Of a stretch of DNA of 35,434 bases, positions 19,204 through 26,013 are shown piece by piece; the stretch's first letter is position 1; each line of letters opens with the position of its first letter. The stretch spans positions 1 through 35,434 of the forward strand of contig NZ_CANBCQ010000030.1 of the NCBI RefSeq assembly GCF_947367125.1. Direction: 5' to 3'. This DNA comes from an uncultured Lactobacillus sp. (GTDB lineage Bacteria > Bacillota > Bacilli > Lactobacillales > Lactobacillaceae). Under the pieces are notes generated by a model. It made no database searches. It had not been told where the DNA came from and saw nothing but the letters and a program-made list of their open reading frames with translations. The translations under genes and the position numbers were made by a program.

Positions 19204-20538
19204 ATGGAGGATAAAAATACAGGATTACCCACATTAGCTAGTACGACAATTTGGATGATTAGCTTAGGGTATTTAGGCGTTCAGATTGCCTTTACCTTGG
19301 AAACGTCACAAATGAGTCGAATCTTCCAAACATTGGGTGCTGATCCAACTAAACTAGGCTGGTTCTTTATTTTGCCGCCACTTGCTGGCTTAGTAGTTCA
19401 GCCAGGGATTGGGTCATTATCCGATCGGACCTGGATTCCAAAAATCGGTCGAAGATTGCCATACTTATTGATCGGAATGATCTTTGCGGTAATTACCATG
19501 ATTATCTTGCCAAATGTTGGTAGTTTTGGTTTAGGTTATGGCTCTGTTGAAGCATTAATTTTTGGTGCTGTAGCCATTGCCGTTTTGGATGTGGCATCGA
19601 ACATGGCAATGCAGCCATTTAAGATGATGATCGGTGATATGGTTAATGATAAACAAAAGTCATACGCTTACGGGATTCAAAGCATGTTGTCCAACTTTGG
19701 TGCGGTAATTGCGGCCTTTTTCCCATTTTTATTAACTAGTTTGGGTGTAGCCAATACTGCTAAAAGGGGTGTGGTACCACAATCAGTAGTTATTTCATTC
19801 TACGTTGGTGCTGCTGTTTTAGTAATTACTTCACTCTTTACTATTTTTAGAGTACACGAATATGATCCAGAAACATATGCACGCTACCACGGGATTAAAG
19901 AATCCGACAATAAAGAAGGTGGCGGCTGGATTGAATTGTTAAAGAAGGCGCCAAAGGTCTTCTGGCAAGTATCCTTAGTACAATTCTTCTGCTGGATTTC
20001 ATTCCAGTATTTATCAACTTACGCCACTGGTGCGATTGCGCAAAATGTTTGGCATACCACCAACGCTTCTTCTGCTGGCTACCAGATTGCCGGTAACTGG
20101 TTTGGTGTTTTGACTGCAGTGCAATCAATTGCGGCGGTAATTTGGTCCTATGTTTTAGCTAAGGTGCCAAACAATCACCATAAATTAGGTTATGGCCTTA
20201 GTTTATTCTTAGGTGGGGTAGGTTACACTTCAATCTTCTTGATTCATTCACAAAGTCTTTTGATTTTATCATTTATCTTGATTGGTATCAGCTGGGCCGG
20301 AATGAATACCTATCCATTAACCATGGTATCTAACGCCTTATCAGGTAAGCACATGGGAACTTACTTAGGTTTATTCAATTGCTCAATCTGCTTACCTCAA
20401 ATTGTGGCATCACTGCTCAGTTTTTTAATTTTCCCAATGGTCGGCAATTCTATGCCAGCTATGATGTTAATCACTGGTATTTCAGGCTTCTTAGGCGCTT
20501 TATCAGTTTTAGCAATTAAGGAAACCTACGTAAAATAG
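19204..20538 (+). CDS. SLC45-type MFS sugar transporter
   Basis: A 444-residue, 12-helix major facilitator. N-terminal GVQIAFTLETSQMSRIFQTLG and LVVQPGIGSLSDRT, then GRRLPYLLIG, follow the pattern of SLC45/sucrose-maltose proton symporters rather than GPH permeases. Likely imports a disaccharide with protons, probably maltose or sucrose; substrate is inference. RBS GAGAGGGAAG before the ATG. The cre-rich promoter upstream fits a carbon-source transporter. No glycosidase or phosphorylase gene is adjacent. Terminated by the hairpin at 20555-20595. Confidence 0.83.
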   Translation: MEDKNTGLPTLASTTIWMISLGYLGVQIAFTLETSQMSRIFQTLGADPTKLGWFFILPPLAGLVVQPGIGSLSDRTWIPKIGRRLPYLLIGMIFAVITMIILPNVGSFGLGYGSVEALIFGAVAIAVLDVASNMAMQPFKMMIGDMVNDKQKSYAYGIQSMLSNFGAVIAAFFPFLLTSLGVANTAKRGVVPQSVVISFYVGAAVLVITSLFTIFRVHEYDPETYARYHGIKESDNKEGGGWIELLKKAPKVFWQVSLVQFFCWISFQYLSTYATGAIAQNVWHTTNASSAGYQIAGNWFGVLTAVQSIAAVIWSYVLAKVPNNHHKLGYGLSLFLGGVGYTSIFLIHSQSLLILSFILIGISWAGMNTYPLTMVSNALSGKHMGTYLGLFNCSICLPQIVASLLSFLIFPMVGNSMPAMMLITGISGFLGALSVLAIKETYVK

Positions 20539-20554
20539 AATATCTTCTCATTAA

Positions 20555-20595
20555 AAAACACACTACAATGTGCAATTATGCATGTAGTGTGTTTT
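20555..20595. terminator. Bidirectional terminator overlapping the 3' end of immA
   Basis: AAAACACACTACA (20555-20567) pairs with TGTAGTGTGTTTT (20583-20595); the loop arms TGTGCA/TGCAT may extend it. The last codons of the minus-strand protease gene (stop at 20576) lie inside the hairpin. Confidence 0.75.
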
Positions 20596-21052
20596 GTGAT
20601 TTATCTATGTAGAAAAATTCGCCTTCGTCTTTGAACATTTTGTAGGTTTCTTTGATCATTCTTTCAGGGATTGCATAAGATTGGACGAATGCAATTGGGT
20701 CATAGAAATTATCTTCTTGTCCGCAAGAGTATTGATAGATCAGATGCAATCCATAAATATCGGCATCTCTTTCTTCGTCATCAAGGCCGCCATAATCAAG
20801 ACAACAATTATATTGTTTTAAGTTGGGCCTGCCATCCATGATATGCCCAATTTCATGAGCAACTGTAAATGGTACTTCCGGTGAATGGTGGTGCCAATTC
20901 ATGTTGATACAGATTTCTCGCTCATTTTTAAATGAAAGAGAGGGATTATTGGGATCTGATTCAAAAAAGACGTAACCAATATCATGCTCATAAGCATAAT
21001 TAAATAAATACGTGATTAGTTGATTTTTTCTATAGTTATTGTCCACTGCCAT
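20576..21052 (-). CDS. ImmA/IrrE-family metallo-endopeptidase
   Basis: A 158-residue protein with zinc motif HEIGH at 66-70 (PFTVAHEIGHIMDG) and downstream acidic residues (DDEERDADIYG) expected to give the third ligand. ImmA-type proteases cleave the XRE repressor encoded beside them, switching on integrative elements and prophages after DNA damage or cell signals. Here it overlaps by 17 nt the XRE repressor-like gene upstream, the usual ImmR-ImmA order. No integrase or phage structural genes are near; the divergently transcribed genes are a holin and a bacteriocin, so these are the likely targets (inference). Confidence 0.88.
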   Translation of the reverse strand: MAVDNNYRKNQLITYLFNYAYEHDIGYVFFESDPNNPSLSFKNEREICINMNWHHHSPEVPFTVAHEIGHIMDGRPNLKQYNCCLDYGGLDDEERDADIYGLHLIYQYSCGQEDNFYDPIAFVQSYAIPERMIKETYKMFKDEGEFFYIDKSQNTLHA

Positions 21053-21389
21053 GTTTTCTAGCTTCTCTCTCTTTGATGTCTCTCTTCATGAGTTCTCGGA
21101 CCATGTCAAGATATTCTTTAGGAACAGGATGACCATAGTATGAATAGGGTACCTCATCTTCCAAATTCACAGTGTCCTGCAAACGTGGAGCAGGGTCATC
21201 GGTAATGCCACTTAAATAGTCTATTGATGTATGCAAAACCTTAGCAACTGCACCTAAGGCCATAATCCCCGGTTTTCTGGTTTTCCAATTGTAGATACTT
21301 CTTTTGCCTAAGCCTGCCTTGTCATTTACTTCTAGTAAAGACATTTTTCTTTTTTTCGCTAATTCTTTTGTACGCTCAAACTCAATCAT
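21036..21389 (-). CDS. XRE-family repressor (ImmR-like)
   Basis: A 117-residue protein with an N-terminal HTH (about 3-62: RTKELAKKRKMSLLEVNDKA, then GKRSIYNWKTRKPGIMALG and LHTSIDYLSGITDD) and a charged C-terminal tail that may be the protease target. Start ATG 21389 (MIEFER) is the first plausible one; its SD is weak (GAAGAAA), and the frame stays open upstream through a hairpin and the promoter. Overlaps the ImmA-like gene. Divergent from the holin/helveticin pair, with dyads in between, so probably represses both. Confidence 0.85.
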   Translation of the reverse strand: MIEFERTKELAKKRKMSLLEVNDKAGLGKRSIYNWKTRKPGIMALGAVAKVLHTSIDYLSGITDDPAPRLQDTVNLEDEVPYSYYGHPVPKEYLDMVRELMKRDIKEREARKHGSGQ

Positions 21390-21413
21390 GACGAGGTTTT
21401 CTTCACTTTCTAA

Positions 21414-21441
21414 ATAAAAAAAGTACGCTAAAAAGCGTATT
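21414..21441. terminator. Hairpin with T/A flanks in the leader of the XRE gene
   Basis: TACGCT-AAAA-AGCGTA (21424-21439) flanked by an A7 run on the left and TTTTT on the right. On the minus strand it reads as a short stem followed by TTTTTTTATTT, within the 5' leader of the XRE gene. It could attenuate that transcript or block antisense readthrough. The stem is only 6-7 bp. Confidence 0.45.
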
Positions 21442-21459
21442 TTTACTTGACATAGTATT

Positions 21460-21487
21460 CGTATAAGCATATTATATGAACTGTCAA
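21460..21487 (-). promoter_or_regulatory. Promoter of the XRE-ImmA pair
   Basis: On the minus strand, TTGACA (21482-21487), 16-bp spacer and TATACG (21460-21465). The -35 is a perfect match, the -10 four of six. Confidence 0.55.
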
Positions 21488-21577
21488 CAAGTTAAAAACA
21501 ATCTAATGACCAGAAAAATTCTGTGTGGTAGTGGAATCAATGGCACTAGTCTGTTTTTTATACCTTTATTGTAGTAT

Positions 21578-21606
21578 ATTGACGTATTTTGGTCAATGAT
21601 TAATAT
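21578..21606 (+). promoter_or_regulatory. Promoter of holin-helveticin with overlapping dyad
   Basis: TTGACG (21579-21584), 16-bp spacer and TAATAT (21601-21606). The dyad ATTGAC-GTATTTTG-GTCAAT (21578-21597) covers the -35 and most of the spacer, as expected of a repressor operator. The XRE protein encoded divergently is the obvious candidate. Confidence 0.55.
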
Positions 21607-21680
21607 GTCAATACTTAAATTAAGCCTGCTTGTTGAACATTATCAAACAGAGGTGAAGTCCAATGGACATTCGTTAACCC

Positions 21681-21707
21681 CCTCTGATCATTTGATCAAA
21701 AGAGAGG
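21681..21707 (+). promoter_or_regulatory. Hairpin covering the holin ribosome binding site
   Basis: CCTCT-GATCA (21681-21690) can pair with TGATC (21693-21697) and AGAGG (21703-21707), the only SD-like sequence before the holin ATG at 21722. SD to ATG spacing is long (14 nt). Translation of the holin may thus be held low, sensible for a lethal protein. Confidence 0.4.
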
Positions 21708-21721
21708 TGATTTATTTAATC

Positions 21722-22039
21722 ATGGATATTCATGATTACGTTGAGCTGATTACTCTAGCTTTATGGGTAATTAGCGTAGTAGGTATTGGCATCTTGAGCA
21801 GGGTTCATTTCAAGAACAAGCGCTTGGAGCAATTCCGTAACACTGCAGATAACTTGATGAAAAGCTATGTTAATTTGTACGACAAGGAAAATCTTTCTGA
21901 CGAACAGAAGATTAATCGCGTTGGCAATGCAGTAGTGAACAGTCTTGAGGCAAAAGGCTTCAAGCTGAATAGGCAGGAAGTGCAGGACATTTTTGCGGAA
22001 GTAGCTAAGCAGATGAATGAGCAAACTCAGGATAAGTAG
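21722..22039 (+). CDS. LL-H-family holin-like protein
   Basis: A 105-residue protein: short N-terminus, one membrane helix (about 8-27, VELITLALWVISVVGIGIL), then a polar helical region with NKRLEQFRNTADNL and, near the C-terminus, KINRVGNAVVNSLEAKGFKLN, then RQEVQDIFAEVAKQM. This arrangement matches the Holin_LLH (phage holin superfamily 6) pattern known from Lactobacillus phage LL-H. Start ATG 21722 (MDIHDY) is preferred, as upstream in-frame starts lack an SD. The next gene, a helveticin J-like bacteriocin without signal peptide, starts 32 nt on. The holin may therefore help release it. No endolysin is adjacent. Confidence 0.7.
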   Translation: MDIHDYVELITLALWVISVVGIGILSRVHFKNKRLEQFRNTADNLMKSYVNLYDKENLSDEQKINRVGNAVVNSLEAKGFKLNRQEVQDIFAEVAKQMNEQTQDK

Positions 22040-22071
22040 TAATAATTTTTAAATTTTTCGGAGGTTTTATT

Positions 22072-23037
22072 ATGGTTGATATGAGACAAGCAACAAATAT
22101 TTCAACAAGTCATACAGCTGACTTGAACACTGGCTACATGGCAGTAGCACAAAAGGGTAATGTAGGTTCAAAGTATATTTATGCAGAACAATTGCGCAAT
22201 AATCAAAAGGAAATTCACGTTTTGCGCGGTTATGCAGGCAATGTAACTACGCCTGTAGTTACTATGTATGGTAGTGCTGGCGGTCATACTCAAACCTGGG
22301 AATATTCAGGAAGATCTGGTAAATGGTTTGTAGGCACTAAGCCAGGTCCAAAGTGGGACAAGCAAATCGCTAGGGTTAATATTAGTCCTCTTGGCAGAGT
22401 ATTTTACTCAAATACTGATATGCCACGTTTAGCATATTTAAACCGTGCAGGTGGTTTGTTGAAGCCAGATGGTTCAACTTATGCAGGTGATGATATGAAG
22501 CGTGCGGAAGCTGCTGTATCACCAGATTATTCTAAGTTTCTGTTAGCAACAATGGATAATTGGGGTAATGGTTACTTTACAATCTATGATAATAACTTGA
22601 TCAACGATAAACTTGATAGCGCAGAATACAATAATGATTATGTAAGTCTTGATGGTCTTTCATGCTTAGAGAGTTTTGTTGTAGCAGGATTTTATAGTGC
22701 TGTTAATTCATCTGTTCAAGGTTATGATCTTGATAACGAAGGTAATATTTATGTATCAAGTCAAGAATCACCTGATACTGTCGGACATAAATATTACACT
22801 AAGAACATTTTTAAGATTCCAACTTTTGCCAGAACGGATACTTCAAGTTGGTTACAAATTGATTTAGATAATAATTCAGTAATCAACATTTACGGTCAAG
22901 GTATGCATACTGAACTTGAAGGTATTCAAATCCTTAATGAAAATCACTGCTACTTAACTGTGGCATATCACAAGACTGTTGGCGGTAAGAACAAGACCGT
23001 TTCTAACAAGATCTATGAGGTAAGCTGGAACGAATAA
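22072..23037 (+). CDS. Helveticin J-family class III bacteriocin
   Basis: A 321-residue protein that follows helveticin J along its length as I recall it: GYMAVAQKGNVGSKYIYAEQ, GGHTQTWEYSG, KQIARVNISPLG, YSNTDMPRLAYLNRAG, EAAVSPDYSKFLLATMDNWG, SVQGYDLDNEGNIYVSSQ, ENHCYLTVAYH and IYEVSW at the end. Helveticin J is about 37 kDa, heat-labile and made without a signal peptide. The repeats suggest a beta-propeller-like fold. SD CGGAGG lies 7 nt before the ATG. It is co-transcribed with the holin-like gene and ends at a strong terminator. Some family members act only in processing or adhesion, so killing activity is not assured. No immunity gene is recognisable. Confidence 0.92.
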   Translation: MVDMRQATNISTSHTADLNTGYMAVAQKGNVGSKYIYAEQLRNNQKEIHVLRGYAGNVTTPVVTMYGSAGGHTQTWEYSGRSGKWFVGTKPGPKWDKQIARVNISPLGRVFYSNTDMPRLAYLNRAGGLLKPDGSTYAGDDMKRAEAAVSPDYSKFLLATMDNWGNGYFTIYDNNLINDKLDSAEYNNDYVSLDGLSCLESFVVAGFYSAVNSSVQGYDLDNEGNIYVSSQESPDTVGHKYYTKNIFKIPTFARTDTSSWLQIDLDNNSVINIYGQGMHTELEGIQILNENHCYLTVAYHKTVGGKNKTVSNKIYEVSWNE

Positions 23038-23049
23038 AAATATAGTTTT

Positions 23050-23088
23050 AAGACATTAAACATTTTAGACATGTTTAATGTCTTTTTT
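23050..23088 (+). terminator. Terminator of the holin-helveticin operon
   Basis: AAGACATTAAACAT (23050-23063) pairs with ATGTTTAATGTCTT (23071-23084), followed by TTTTA. Confidence 0.92.
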
Positions 23089-23150
23089 ATTAATTTGAGT
23101 GATTGGGAGTATAATAACTATGAGATTAATAGTAAAAGGAAAGATTTATT

Positions 23151-24356
23151 ATGAAGATAAATAGAAAAATAACCGCGATTTCAATGGCTGCATTGATGTG
23201 TGCTAGTCCAATTATTGTAATTAATATGAATGAAAAAGTACAAGCAGCAGAAAATTCAGTTATTAAGACAGTCATGCACAATGCACTTGCGTATGATAAA
23301 GATGGAAATAGTACCGGTCATAAATATTACGTTTATGGTAGTGTTCATGTAGATCCAAAACCAGTAACTATAAATGGAGATCAATATTACAAAGTTACCG
23401 ATAAAGATGAATATATCAAAGTAACTAATATTGATGGGGTTAAGCGTAAAATCACTCACAATACCTACATTTATCGCACCTCAACAGGTAGAACTTCATA
23501 CAATGGCCGATGGAAGTTGTATAAGGGCGAAACTATTACGACTTATGGTGGCTCATATAAGTTCAAGAATGGTAAGCATTACTTCCGTGTAGGTGGACCG
23601 CGTAAGCAATATGTTAAGTCATACAACTTGGGACCAATCATTAGTAGTAATATACCAGCAAGCGGTGAAAATACTAATAATTCAACTTCAATCACTACGC
23701 AAAAAAATGCTGATGAAACTACAGTTACTGTAGATGATACTAAAACACCAATCATTACATTTGATCAGTCAGGTAATGTAGTGAGAGTTAAGGATGCTAA
23801 TGATGGTGAAAAGTTTGTCGTAGATCGTAAAGAAACAGGAGCTCGTGCTGATAAAGTAGCAAACTTCATTGGTCAATTTGGTGGAGCACAAGCTATTTAT
23901 CGCATTAAGGGTACAGATAATTGGATTTACTCAATGGGTGTTAAGGTTTCAAAAGATATTCCAGCGCACTACTATGATAATGAAAAATTCAGTCTAGTTA
24001 GATTCCAAAATGCCGCAGATTTATATAACGAAAACGGAGTTTCATTAAATGCTAAGATGAAGAAGAACTCTATAACTTGGAAAGTTGATAAGTTAGTTTA
24101 CATCTGGGTACCAAGTGAAAATAAAGCTGAAGAATTTTACCATCTCTCACCATTCATTATTGGTTATGAAATAAGTTATATTCAATATGCATCGCATGAA
24201 ATTGCTGCAAGTACAAATATTTATGATAAAGGTGCATATGTTAAGGCTAGTGATGTTTCTTTTGAAGACAAGAGCGTTAAGTTATCACCATCAAACACAC
24301 CAGAACAAGCCAAGGCTACATATGAAGCAAATAGCAAAAAGGCTATTATCAAATAG
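23151..24356 (+). CDS. SLAP-domain secreted surface protein
   Basis: A 401-residue protein: signal peptide (about 1-32, cut near VQA-A), then two SLAP (S-layer attachment) repeats, VMHNALAYDKDGNSTGHKYY...YIKVTNIDG and KRKITHNTYIYRTSTGRTSY...YFRVGGPRKQYVKSYNLG (about 35-165). After an Asn/Ser/Thr linker come two further modules rich in TVTVDD, KFVVDRKETGARAD, YRIKGTDNWIYSM and AYVKASDVSF. SLAP repeats bind wall polymers, so this should be a non-covalently attached surface protein. It is the most complete of three paralogues in tandem. Function beyond attachment unknown. Confidence 0.85.
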   Translation: MKINRKITAISMAALMCASPIIVINMNEKVQAAENSVIKTVMHNALAYDKDGNSTGHKYYVYGSVHVDPKPVTINGDQYYKVTDKDEYIKVTNIDGVKRKITHNTYIYRTSTGRTSYNGRWKLYKGETITTYGGSYKFKNGKHYFRVGGPRKQYVKSYNLGPIISSNIPASGENTNNSTSITTQKNADETTVTVDDTKTPIITFDQSGNVVRVKDANDGEKFVVDRKETGARADKVANFIGQFGGAQAIYRIKGTDNWIYSMGVKVSKDIPAHYYDNEKFSLVRFQNAADLYNENGVSLNAKMKKNSITWKVDKLVYIWVPSENKAEEFYHLSPFIIGYEISYIQYASHEIAASTNIYDKGAYVKASDVSFEDKSVKLSPSNTPEQAKATYEANSKKAIIK

Positions 24357-25111: not shown

Positions 25112-25170
25112 AATGTTTTCATTGGCTTGGAAGCATATAATTGCGGTGTAGAGATTTGAAAAGGATGATT

Positions 25171-26013
25171 ATGATGAAGAAAAATAAAATTACATTAATC
25201 TCTGTAGCAGCGTTGATAGCCGTTACACCTTTAACGGTTGGTACTACTCAACCTAATGAAGTATGGGCCGCAGGCACTTCAATTAGAAAAACTATTATGC
25301 ATACTGCAATTGGTTATGATACAAATGGTAGGAACTCGGGCATAAAACTTTATCCATATAAAGTTATTAACGTTGACCAGATTCCTGTCCGTATTAATGA
25401 CCAACAATATTACAAAGTAACTGGTAAATACTTATATATAAAGCCTACAAATATCGATGGCGTAACACGAAAAATTACTCATAACACTTATATTTATAGT
25501 AGCTCTACTAAACGCACTTCTTTTAACGGAAGACGAAAATTAAATAAAGGTGAAACTATTACTACATATGGTAGTTCTTACAAATTTAAAGATGGAAAAA
25601 GTTACTTTAGAATAGGCGGCCCAAGCAAGCAATATGTTAAAGCAGCTAACTTAAGTTCAGTAATTAAAAGCAATACTGCTTCAGGATCAACTGATGTAAA
25701 TAGGCACTATGCCAAAGAAACTATAGTAACAGTTCATGTTAGAAGCACATATAAGAAGACAGCACCAATATTTACTTTTGATGAAAATACTACTGCTGAG
25801 AATAAGGCTGTAATTGTAAAAAGAGTTCCAAATGGTACTAAGTTTACAGTTGATCGGCTAGAATATGGCAAAAGAGCTGACATGGTAGCAGCCAAAATAG
25901 CATCATTCAATGGAAATCAGGCTATTTATCATATTAAAGGTACTAATAATTGGATTTATTCAATTGATGTTGATCCTGAGAAACAGTTGTTAGAGCAATA
26001 TTACAACAAATAA
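25171..26013 (+). CDS. SLAP-domain secreted protein, C-terminally short paralogue
   Basis: A 280-residue paralogue of the 23151 gene product: signal peptide (to about VWAA), two SLAP repeats (IMHTAIGYDTNGRNSG, YIKPTNIDG; RKITHNTYIYSSSTKRTSFN, YFRIGGPSKQYVK) and one middle module ending YHIKGTNNWIYSIDV. It stops at the boundary where the longer paralogue continues with its last module, so it is a natural domain truncation. Start ATG 25171 chosen for the AAAAGG at 6-7 nt; ATG 25174 is equally possible. Followed by a strong terminator. Confidence 0.83.
   Translation: MMKKNKITLISVAALIAVTPLTVGTTQPNEVWAAGTSIRKTIMHTAIGYDTNGRNSGIKLYPYKVINVDQIPVRINDQQYYKVTGKYLYIKPTNIDGVTRKITHNTYIYSSSTKRTSFNGRRKLNKGETITTYGSSYKFKDGKSYFRIGGPSKQYVKAANLSSVIKSNTASGSTDVNRHYAKETIVTVHVRSTYKKTAPIFTFDENTTAENKAVIVKRVPNGTKFTVDRLEYGKRADMVAAKIASFNGNQAIYHIKGTNNWIYSIDVDPEKQLLEQYYNK

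What the first reader, a model, noticed from the sequence alone, without database searches (positions are those of the whole stretch)
20576..23037. Prophage-type ImmA/XRE switch driving a holin plus helveticin J-like bacteriocin
An ImmA-like zinc protease overlaps an XRE repressor gene; divergent from them are an LL-H-type holin and, 32 nt later, a helveticin J-family protein lacking a signal peptide. Dyads cover the holin promoter. No integrase, endolysin or structural genes are present. Established: ImmA cleaves ImmR-type repressors to induce mobile elements, and holins permeabilise membranes. Inference: a domesticated phage switch releases a class III bacteriocin on stress, solving the export problem for a leaderless 36-kDa protein.
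Basis: partly seen in the sequence, partly recalled or inferred. Interest (0 to 1): 0.82.

Follow-up and report, generated by a model that had tools for sequence, protein, structure and literature searches.

The report
Phage-switch holin cassette for helveticin
A Lactobacillus bacteriocin gene with no export signal sits behind a phage-type repressor switch and a phage-type membrane-hole protein, and the same package recurs in other lactobacilli with different bacteriocins in it, which suggests a reusable release device whose payload can be changed.

Summary
Nine copies with all five genes occur in 7 of 75 Lactobacillus genomes (two copies have a broken gene), and the block is on three plasmids.

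Evidence favours a mobile, modular cassette. Remote holin relatives precede GH25 endolysins in 3 of 8 loci read. Operator type follows the XRE recognition helix in 13 of 14 copies (one tie). Identities correlate within XRE-ImmA and within helveticin-SLAP; holin and helveticin do not correlate, which argues against an immunity protein. A distantly related holin is linked to helveticins in bee-type lactobacilli.

Limits: 71 of 88 helveticins have no such holin upstream and almost all look equally signal-less, so the holin is not the family's general export route. Release, induction, repressor cleavage and killing were not tested. Holin-linked signal-less bacteriocins (Bcn5/UviB) and repressor-protease switches on bacteriocins (Listeria monocin) are known separately; I found no paper joining them for helveticin. 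Verdict: new variant of a known kind.

The parts
20576..21052 (-). ImmA-like (IrrE/M78-type) zinc metalloprotease, 158 aa, HEIGH motif; candidate anti-repressor
   Evidence: ORF; PHROG_87 4e-15; HEIGH and EE..AD invariant in 7 sequences
21036..21389 (-). XRE-family repressor, 117 aa, recognition helix KRSIYNW
   Evidence: PHROG_8 1.2e-14; start set by conservation
21424..21439 (.). operator-like dyad TACGCT-AAAA-AGCGTA next to the XRE start; in G010 both arms change to TATGCT/AGCATA
21447..21475 (+). holin-side promoter TTGACA-17-TATTAT (11 of 12), same place in 14 of 14 copies
21568..21596 (-). XRE promoter TTGACC-17-TACAAT facing the holin promoter; TTGA-type counterpart in 12 of 14 copies
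   Evidence: sequence; alignment
21663..21677 (+). mini-ORF M-D-I-R-stop with its own Shine-Dalgarno (21649-21656); 3-4 codons plus stop in 13 of 14 copies
21680..21708 (+). possible hairpin pairing the holin Shine-Dalgarno AGAGAGG (21701-21707); at least 5 of 7 bases paired in 10 of 12 copies, energies weak against shuffles
21722..22039 (+). holin, 105 aa: one hydrophobic segment then a long charged tail
   Evidence: PHROG_2609/6918; 39% to a protein directly before a GH25 endolysin; hydropathy
22072..23037 (+). helveticin J-family protein, 321 aa, no signal peptide by hydropathy
   Evidence: PF17312 1.1e-35
23050..23084 (+). terminator-like hairpin (14 pairs) after helveticin
23151..24356 (+). 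SLAP-domain (PF03217) protein with a signal-peptide-like N-terminus (by eye); a SLAP gene follows within 1.5 kb, on either strand, in 13 of 13 holin-linked loci

Best explanation
This is a mobile, modular bacteriocin cassette. In the resting state XRE binds operators over two facing promoters and keeps the holin-side promoter silent. When a signal activates the ImmA-like protease, XRE is removed and the holin, with helveticin 32 nt behind it, is transcribed through a leader of about 240 nt that contains a mini-ORF and possibly a hairpin over the holin start. The holin, which has one membrane helix and a charged tail, lets the folded signal-less helveticin leave, either by non-lytic passage or by lysis of a minority of cells. 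The SLAP protein encoded downstream goes out by the general secretory route, attaches to the wall, and is the matched partner of the helveticin (tether or self-protection). Helveticin plus SLAP are exchanged as a payload on a conserved switch and holin chassis. Shown here by sequence: gene content, recurrence, conserved regulatory DNA, operator-repressor covariation, constraint, module exchange. Inferred: cleavage of XRE, the inducing signal, the route of release, SLAP function, killing.
For: Recurrence: 9 copies with ImmA-XRE / holin-helveticin-SLAP in 7 of 75 genomes (8 in the table, plus G004, whose helveticin is frameshifted) and 3 plasmids, the latter by annotation and position. A SLAP gene downstream in 13 of 13 holin-linked helveticins against 10 of 75 others, 4 of those 10 being cut contigs. 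Holin kinship: PHROG holins for 11 of 11 sequences; 39% identity, E 7e-27, to a protein directly before a GH25 endolysin; that order in 3 of the 8 remote holin loci read. dN/dS: holin 0.023-0.047 in three pairs, XRE 0.038 in one, helveticin 0.12-0.23 in three. Operator type follows the recognition helix in 13 of 14 copies, one tie. Mantel tests on 9-10 copies: XRE-ImmA r 0.81, p 0.0002; helveticin-SLAP r 0.81, p 0.0004; holin-helveticin r -0.06 although the genes are only 32 nt apart in the window. Breakpoints at the holin-helveticin border and inside the holin. A second, only distantly related holin lies within 1.7 kb of a helveticin or helveticin piece in 6 of its 7 best matches. The architecture fits the published model for TpeE-type holins, and the same review gives about 50 kDa as the limit for diffusion through the wall (PMC9527704, abstract and passages).
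Against: 71 of 88 full-length helveticins have no holin of this type upstream (4 of them have the second holin type downstream), yet nearly all lack a signal peptide by hydropathy. G008:C8 has a stop inside the holin and a full-length helveticin; G004 has a frameshifted helveticin; G013 is interrupted between holin and helveticin; G035 lacks the ImmA neighbour and G043 has holin-helveticin-SLAP twice without XRE or ImmA. Five of the 8 remote holin loci read show no scanned endolysin beside the holin; in one of the five (L202) the neighbour resembles one but was not scanned. A terminator-like hairpin lies between helveticin and SLAP, so they may not be one transcript. No Pfam or NCBIfam model calls the window holin a holin. 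Promoter-like sites are no more frequent than in shuffles (11 against 11.4), so they rest on conservation. No expression, binding or release data.
Confidence: 0.6

Rival explanations
1. The small membrane protein is the immunity protein of the helveticin, not a release holin; helveticin leaves by cell death or an unknown route, as it must for the many helveticins without a holin.
For: Small membrane proteins beside bacteriocin genes are often immunity proteins (general knowledge). Most signal-less helveticins have no such gene upstream. Curated Pfam and NCBIfam holin models do not match the window protein. A review says that helveticin producers have a gene for an immunity protein, mechanism not described (PMC8538875, passage).
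Against: Immunity should vary with its toxin, but holin identity is uncorrelated with helveticin identity (r -0.06): a 98% identical holin serves helveticins that are 60% identical in one genome. Homologues lie directly before endolysins in 3 loci. SLAP, not the holin, tracks the helveticin.
Confidence: 0.15
2. Lytic release: the holin kills a minority of induced cells, and helveticin spills out as colicins and tailocins do.
For: Phage-type switch with facing promoters; phage-type holin. The Listeria monocin uses a repressor-metalloprotease pair and holin-endolysin lysis (PMC6872733, passages).
Against: No endolysin among the 28 window proteins scanned. Endolysins elsewhere in the genome could serve; I did not search for them.
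Confidence: 0.35
3. A decaying prophage remnant whose holin and switch happen to lie beside a helveticin.
For: Phage-type genes; an XRE/ImmA locus beside an integrase-like gene in the same genome; two copies with a broken gene and one interrupted.
Against: The same order recurs in 7 genomes and on three plasmids; purifying selection; conserved regulatory DNA; no match to helveticin or the holin in 50,697 phage records.
Confidence: 0.07
4. The holin itself is the main effector (self-killing or membrane-depolarising) and helveticin is an incidental passenger gene.
For: The holin is under strong constraint and helveticins are swapped behind it.
Against: Helveticin is full-length in the 13 holin-linked loci counted (the count required at least 255 aa; G004 is frameshifted and outside it), under purifying selection (dN/dS 0.12-0.23) and followed by a SLAP gene in 13 of 13.
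Confidence: 0.08

Closest known systems
Helveticin J locus of Lactobacillus helveticus 481 (Joerger and Klaenhammer 1990; not held; recalled)
   Same: Helveticin J-family gene. From memory the original locus has an open reading frame for an 11.8-kDa protein directly upstream, the size of this holin; depositors name the holin 'helveticin' on two plasmids.
   Different: As far as I recall, that upstream frame was not identified as a holin, nor tied to an XRE/ImmA switch or a SLAP partner.
Bcn5-UviB bacteriocin-holin systems of clostridia (PMC9527704, abstract and passages)
   Same: Signal-less bacteriocin linked to a holin and thought to be released by it.
   Different: BhlA-family holin, sigma factor UviA and an endolysin there; XRE/ImmA, no endolysin seen, SLAP here. 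The main text of the review has no occurrence of helveticin or Lactobacillus.
TcdE holin-like export of signal-less clostridial toxins (PMC3369941, start of abstract in a search listing)
   Same: A holin-like protein needed for secretion of proteins without an export signal.
   Different: Different cargo and regulation (recalled); no relation of sequence was tested.
Listeria monocin cI-MpaR switch (PMC6872733, passages)
   Same: Repressor-metalloprotease pair controlling a bacteriocin and a holin.
   Different: The payload is a phage tail and release uses holin plus endolysin.
ICEBs1 ImmR-ImmA (recalled; described in PMC6872733 passages)
   Same: Repressor followed by its protease.
   Different: Controls a mobile conjugative element; cleavage not shown here.
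Facing promoters of phages P2 and 186 (recalled)
   Same: Two promoters that point at each other, with repressor sites.
   Different: No homology tested.

Membership tests
Helveticin J family (PF17312) | match to the curated profile above its cut-off | tested here: met
   123.9 bits against a cut-off of 25.5
Helveticin J family (PF17312) | bactericidal activity | not testable with these tools
   needs an assay
LLH-type phage holin | match to PF09682 or an NCBIfam holin model | tested here: not met
   no such match for 11 sequences including the window; only a homologue beside an endolysin reaches PF09682, at 1.5e-4 and under cut-off. Not filed as LL-H
Phage holin (general) | homology to holins of phage lysis modules | tested here: met
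   PHROG_2609/6918 in 11 of 11; homologues directly before GH25 endolysins in 3 of 8 remote loci
Phage holin (general) | permeabilises the membrane | not testable with these tools
   needs an assay
ImmR/ImmA-type repressor-protease pair | HExxH zinc protease of the IrrE/M78 type next to an XRE repressor | tested here: met
   HEIGH and downstream acidic residues invariant in 7; PHROG_87 and PHROG_8; but PF06114 only just under cut-off in two relatives and not matched by the window protein at 1e-3
ImmR/ImmA-type repressor-protease pair | protease cleaves the repressor | not testable with these tools
   needs biochemistry
Prophage | integrase, packaging, capsid or tail genes nearby | tested here: not met
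   none among 28 window proteins scanned; not every ORF was scanned
Type 10 secretion / holin-endolysin export | dedicated endolysin with the holin | tested here: not met
   none among 28 window proteins scanned; neighbours of the other copies were looked at as ORF lists only
Bcn5-UviB type holin-linked bacteriocin | signal-less bacteriocin in tight linkage with a holin | tested here: met
Bcn5-UviB type holin-linked bacteriocin | BhlA-family holin and UviA sigma factor | tested here: not met
   no BhlA holin model matched; no sigma factor among window proteins scanned

The most novel reading that the evidence does not exclude
A 'one launcher, many warheads' system: a prophage-derived switch and holin kept as a constant chassis, onto which helveticin-SLAP pairs are swapped by recombination, the SLAP protein being the cognate surface partner or self-protection factor (a candidate for helveticin immunity), and a mini-ORF with a hairpin over the holin start acting as a translational gate that delays release. 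Bee-type lactobacilli may have assembled the same device separately with another, distantly related holin.
Probability: 0.33. Interest if true: 0.75.

Novelty: new variant of a known kind. Interest (0 to 1): 0.62.

Why it matters
Helveticins are widespread in lactobacilli (57 of 75 genomes here). In the papers I looked at I found no demonstrated route by which the signal-less protein leaves the cell; one paper only points to transporter genes downstream of an L. johnsonii helveticin (PMC10703779, passages). A 2021 review says that producers have an immunity gene but that the mechanism has not been described (PMC8538875, passage). The cassette gives concrete candidates for release (holin), control (XRE-ImmA) and partnership or immunity (SLAP) in harmless, tractable bacteria. 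It would extend holin-dependent release of signal-less proteins from clostridia to lactobacilli.

Tried and rejected
Immunity-protein reading of the holin: disfavoured by the lack of correlation with helveticin. Plain prophage remnant: disfavoured by recurrence, constraint and the absence of phage matches. 'LL-H type' label: not confirmed by curated models. Rfam over 20000-23600: four matches, all far below the families' gathering scores. A viral-contig scan for the holin found no relative. No PDB sequence match to helveticin. Structure prediction of helveticin could not be obtained, so its fold is not discussed. The hairpin over the holin start is only weakly supported (z from -2.8 to +1.0). 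Adjacency as the sole cause of the helveticin-SLAP correlation was considered: holin and helveticin are adjacent too and do not correlate. Four genomes (G060, G069, G070, G071) carry a 45-46% holin 8-11 kb from a helveticin; the genes between were looked at in G060 only; not counted as linked.

Limits of counts: one search counts ORFs of at least 255 aa; broken and partial helveticins (for example pieces in G004, G006, G033, G035:C9, G041, G054, G074) were left out. Four rows (L071, L081, L094, L121) have at most 61 nt of contig upstream; L091, put among the 71, has 97, and L084, L128, L140 and L148 have 324-602 nt, so a holin could be missed there. Signal peptides were judged by hydropathy only. 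The operator motifs were read by eye from some of the copies on which they were counted (win, G010, G004, C14, G005), so the other copies are the better check. In the Mantel tests the G008:C8 holin entered as its first 52 residues and the G004 helveticin as its first 212; G035 has no ImmA; SLAP lengths differ from 224 to 568 aa. The SLAP and holin profiles were built from these loci. In the tree the four cut rows count as without holin. G066 and G031 carry identical helveticins, and the helveticins beside the second holin in G033 and G074 are short or in pieces, so that count holds fewer than 6 independent intact cases.
Full report
What is there. The window is a whole 35,434-base contig of a 2.34-Mb Lactobacillus genome (the genus follows from the relatives named, the species was not determined). 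An ImmA-like protease (20576-21052, minus) overlaps an XRE repressor (21036-21389, minus). Divergent from them are a holin (21722-22039), after 32 nt a helveticin J-family gene (22072-23037), and a SLAP-domain gene (23151-24356). Conserved start codons and Shine-Dalgarno sequences put the true starts of XRE and the holin at 21389 and 21722. Of 28 window proteins scanned with Pfam, none is an integrase, endolysin or structural protein.

Is the holin a holin? It has one hydrophobic segment (residues 7-25, mean hydropathy 2.37) and a charged tail (14 K/R and 12 D/E from residue 27 on). Eleven of 11 sequences match two PHROG holin families. Pfam and NCBIfam holin models do not match them. I read eight loci of remote homologues (28-46% identity). 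In three (G061, G073, G029:C30; 39-41%) the homologue lies directly before a GH25 endolysin in what look like prophage lysis modules; in a fourth (G055) the neighbour looks alike but was not scanned; in four no such neighbour is seen. The G061 protein is 39% identical over 92 residues, E 7e-27, and reaches PF09682 at 1.5e-4, just under its cut-off. So it is kin to phage holins; the specific LL-H label is not established.

Recurrence. Among 75 Lactobacillus genomes, 57 have a helveticin and 24 a relative of the holin at E 0.01. I read stretches around the helveticin matches. Of 88 full-length helveticin ORFs, 13 have the holin directly upstream, 4 have too little contig to tell (at most 61 nt), and 71 have none of this type. 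All 13 have a SLAP gene starting within 1.5 kb downstream, on either strand, against 10 of the other 75, of which 4 are the cut contigs. Eight have XRE, ImmA, holin and SLAP together; G004 is a ninth with a frameshifted helveticin, and one of the eight (G008:C8) has a stop inside the holin. These nine lie in seven genomes; contig lengths identify three as L. colini, L. kitasatonis and L. agrestimuris. By annotation and position the same block is on plasmids of L. crispatus, L. helveticus and L. gallinarum. Flanking genes differ between copies, judged by eye. The own genome has 45 SLAP-domain matches in 2.34 Mb, too few, if other genomes are alike, to explain 13 of 13 by chance.

A second holin. 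In an L. helsingborgensis plasmid the order is SLAP, helveticin, a small coiled-looking protein, and a protein annotated 'phage holin, LLH family'; another plasmid has these genes in another order. That holin shows no match to a profile of the window type, in either direction, but both match PHROG_2609, so they are distant kin rather than unrelated. In the 75 genomes it gives 16 places; of the 7 best, 6 lie within 1.7 kb of a helveticin or helveticin piece and one truncated copy (G056) does not; the other 9 are weaker and none is near one.

Counter-evidence on export. By hydropathy nearly all helveticins here lack a signal peptide; the two clear exceptions are L148 and L149. Four of the 71 without the window-type holin have the second type downstream (L067, L101, L127, L128); the rest have neither in the stretches searched. 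So the holin cannot be the general answer; it may serve this set of cassettes only. For an L. johnsonii helveticin one paper points to downstream transporter genes instead (PMC10703779, passages).

Modules. Holin-linked helveticins fall in three distant parts of the helveticin tree, and the label needs 7 changes. Between window and G010, DNA identity is 85-93% through the regulators and holin, then about 60% in helveticin; between window and the second copy of the same genome the holin is 98% identical while XRE is 60% and helveticin 60%; between G005 and G029 the break lies inside the holin. Over 9-10 copies, identity correlates within XRE-ImmA (r 0.81, p 0.0002) and helveticin-SLAP (r 0.81, p 0.0004) and in none of the other eight pairs (highest r 0.18). 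dN/dS is 0.023-0.047 for the holin (three pairs; a fourth was saturated), 0.038 for XRE and 0.107 for ImmA (one pair each), and 0.12-0.23 for helveticin (three pairs); SLAP was not measured. A constant chassis with an exchangeable payload fits; a holin acting as immunity protein does not.

Control region. Between XRE and holin two promoters face each other: TTGACA-17-TATTAT at 21447-21475 and, on the other strand, TTGACC-17-TACAAT at 21596-21568. Such sites are not rarer in shuffles, but the first is at the same place in 14 of 14 copies and a TTGA-type counterpart of the second in 12 of 14. Nine copies with R or K in the second variable position of the XRE recognition helix carry RCRTATT sites (1-6; 0.2-0.4 expected in the copies shuffled), and five with N there carry TATTAGT sites (2-5; 0.1-0.3 expected); in 13 of 14 copies the expected type is the commoner and one (G020) ties at 1:1. 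The motifs were read by eye from some of these copies. The distance from the -35 box to the holin start is 232-276 nt in 10 copies, which implies a leader of about 200-240 nt. It holds a mini-ORF of 3-4 codons in 13 of 14 copies (10 codons in L. ultunensis), and a possible hairpin over the holin Shine-Dalgarno in 10 of 12. The mini-ORF is well conserved; the hairpin is weak.

Mechanism, with what is shown and inferred. Shown: gene content, recurrence, regulatory covariation, constraint, exchange. Inferred: the protease removes the repressor, as described for ICEBs1 and the Listeria monocin (PMC6872733, passages); the holin releases helveticin; SLAP is its partner. The review of non-lytic holin transport proposes that a small holin with one membrane helix and an amphipathic helix can move folded proteins, and gives about 50 kDa as the limit for diffusion through the wall (PMC9527704, abstract and passages), so a 36-kDa protein might need no endolysin. 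Whether the tail here is amphipathic was not tested. Lytic release by a minority of cells remains a serious rival.

Prior work. Searches for helveticin J with holin, helveticin with holin, with SLAP, with S-layer associated, and holin with bacteriocin release and Lactobacillus listed no paper whose title or abstract start proposes this link in the open-access library. Passages were read in three of the five papers; the L. johnsonii KD1 paper has a holin in a separate gassericin-like cluster. A bee-lactobacilli study found a helveticin homologue, expressed under stress, not in a predicted operon and flanked by an S-layer protein (PMC4015849, passages), which agrees with the SLAP link. A Lactobacillus bacteriocin survey describes helveticin homologues and activity; its main text has no occurrence of holin or prophage (PMC5471241, passages and one section). 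Most subscription papers are not held, the original helveticin J study among them.

Verdict. Confirmed observation, partly supported interpretation, and a better-defined object: a modular bacteriocin cassette with a phage-type switch and holin. Each half of the idea has precedents; the combination and the payload exchange look new.

Noticed in passing
L157:2460-5542 (G000:C1): In the same genome an XRE/ImmA/XRE group lies beside an integrase-like gene (named from its sequence, not by a family search); one of its XREs has the window's recognition residues (KRSIYNW), so cross-talk between that element and the cassette is possible.
   Followed up: partly
L071, L121, L154 (G013, L. gallinarum DSM 10532): Contigs break between holin and helveticin with the same short end sequences, as if an insertion element had entered there twice.
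   Followed up: partly
L159 (CP012892): The L. gallinarum plasmid record repeats an 8,401-base unit carrying the cassette, about 2.1 times; it may be a tandem-assembled smaller plasmid.
   Followed up: no
L163:4848-5421: Just before the second holin type lies a small protein with one hydrophobic segment and a charged tail; its relatives travel with that holin near helveticins and may be its partner.
   Followed up: partly
window 25141-26013: A second SLAP-domain gene lies further downstream of the cassette.
   Followed up: no
window 23050-23084: A strong terminator-like hairpin separates helveticin from SLAP, so SLAP may have its own promoter.
   Followed up: no
L155:1150-4333 (G008:C2): A holin relative without a helveticin nearby lies beside a large protein with peptidoglycan-binding and Rv2525c-type glycoside hydrolase-like domains; another cargo of this holin family is possible.
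   Followed up: no
L148:418-1455, L149:3881-4906: Two divergent helveticins look as if they have signal peptides, unlike the rest of the family.
   Followed up: no
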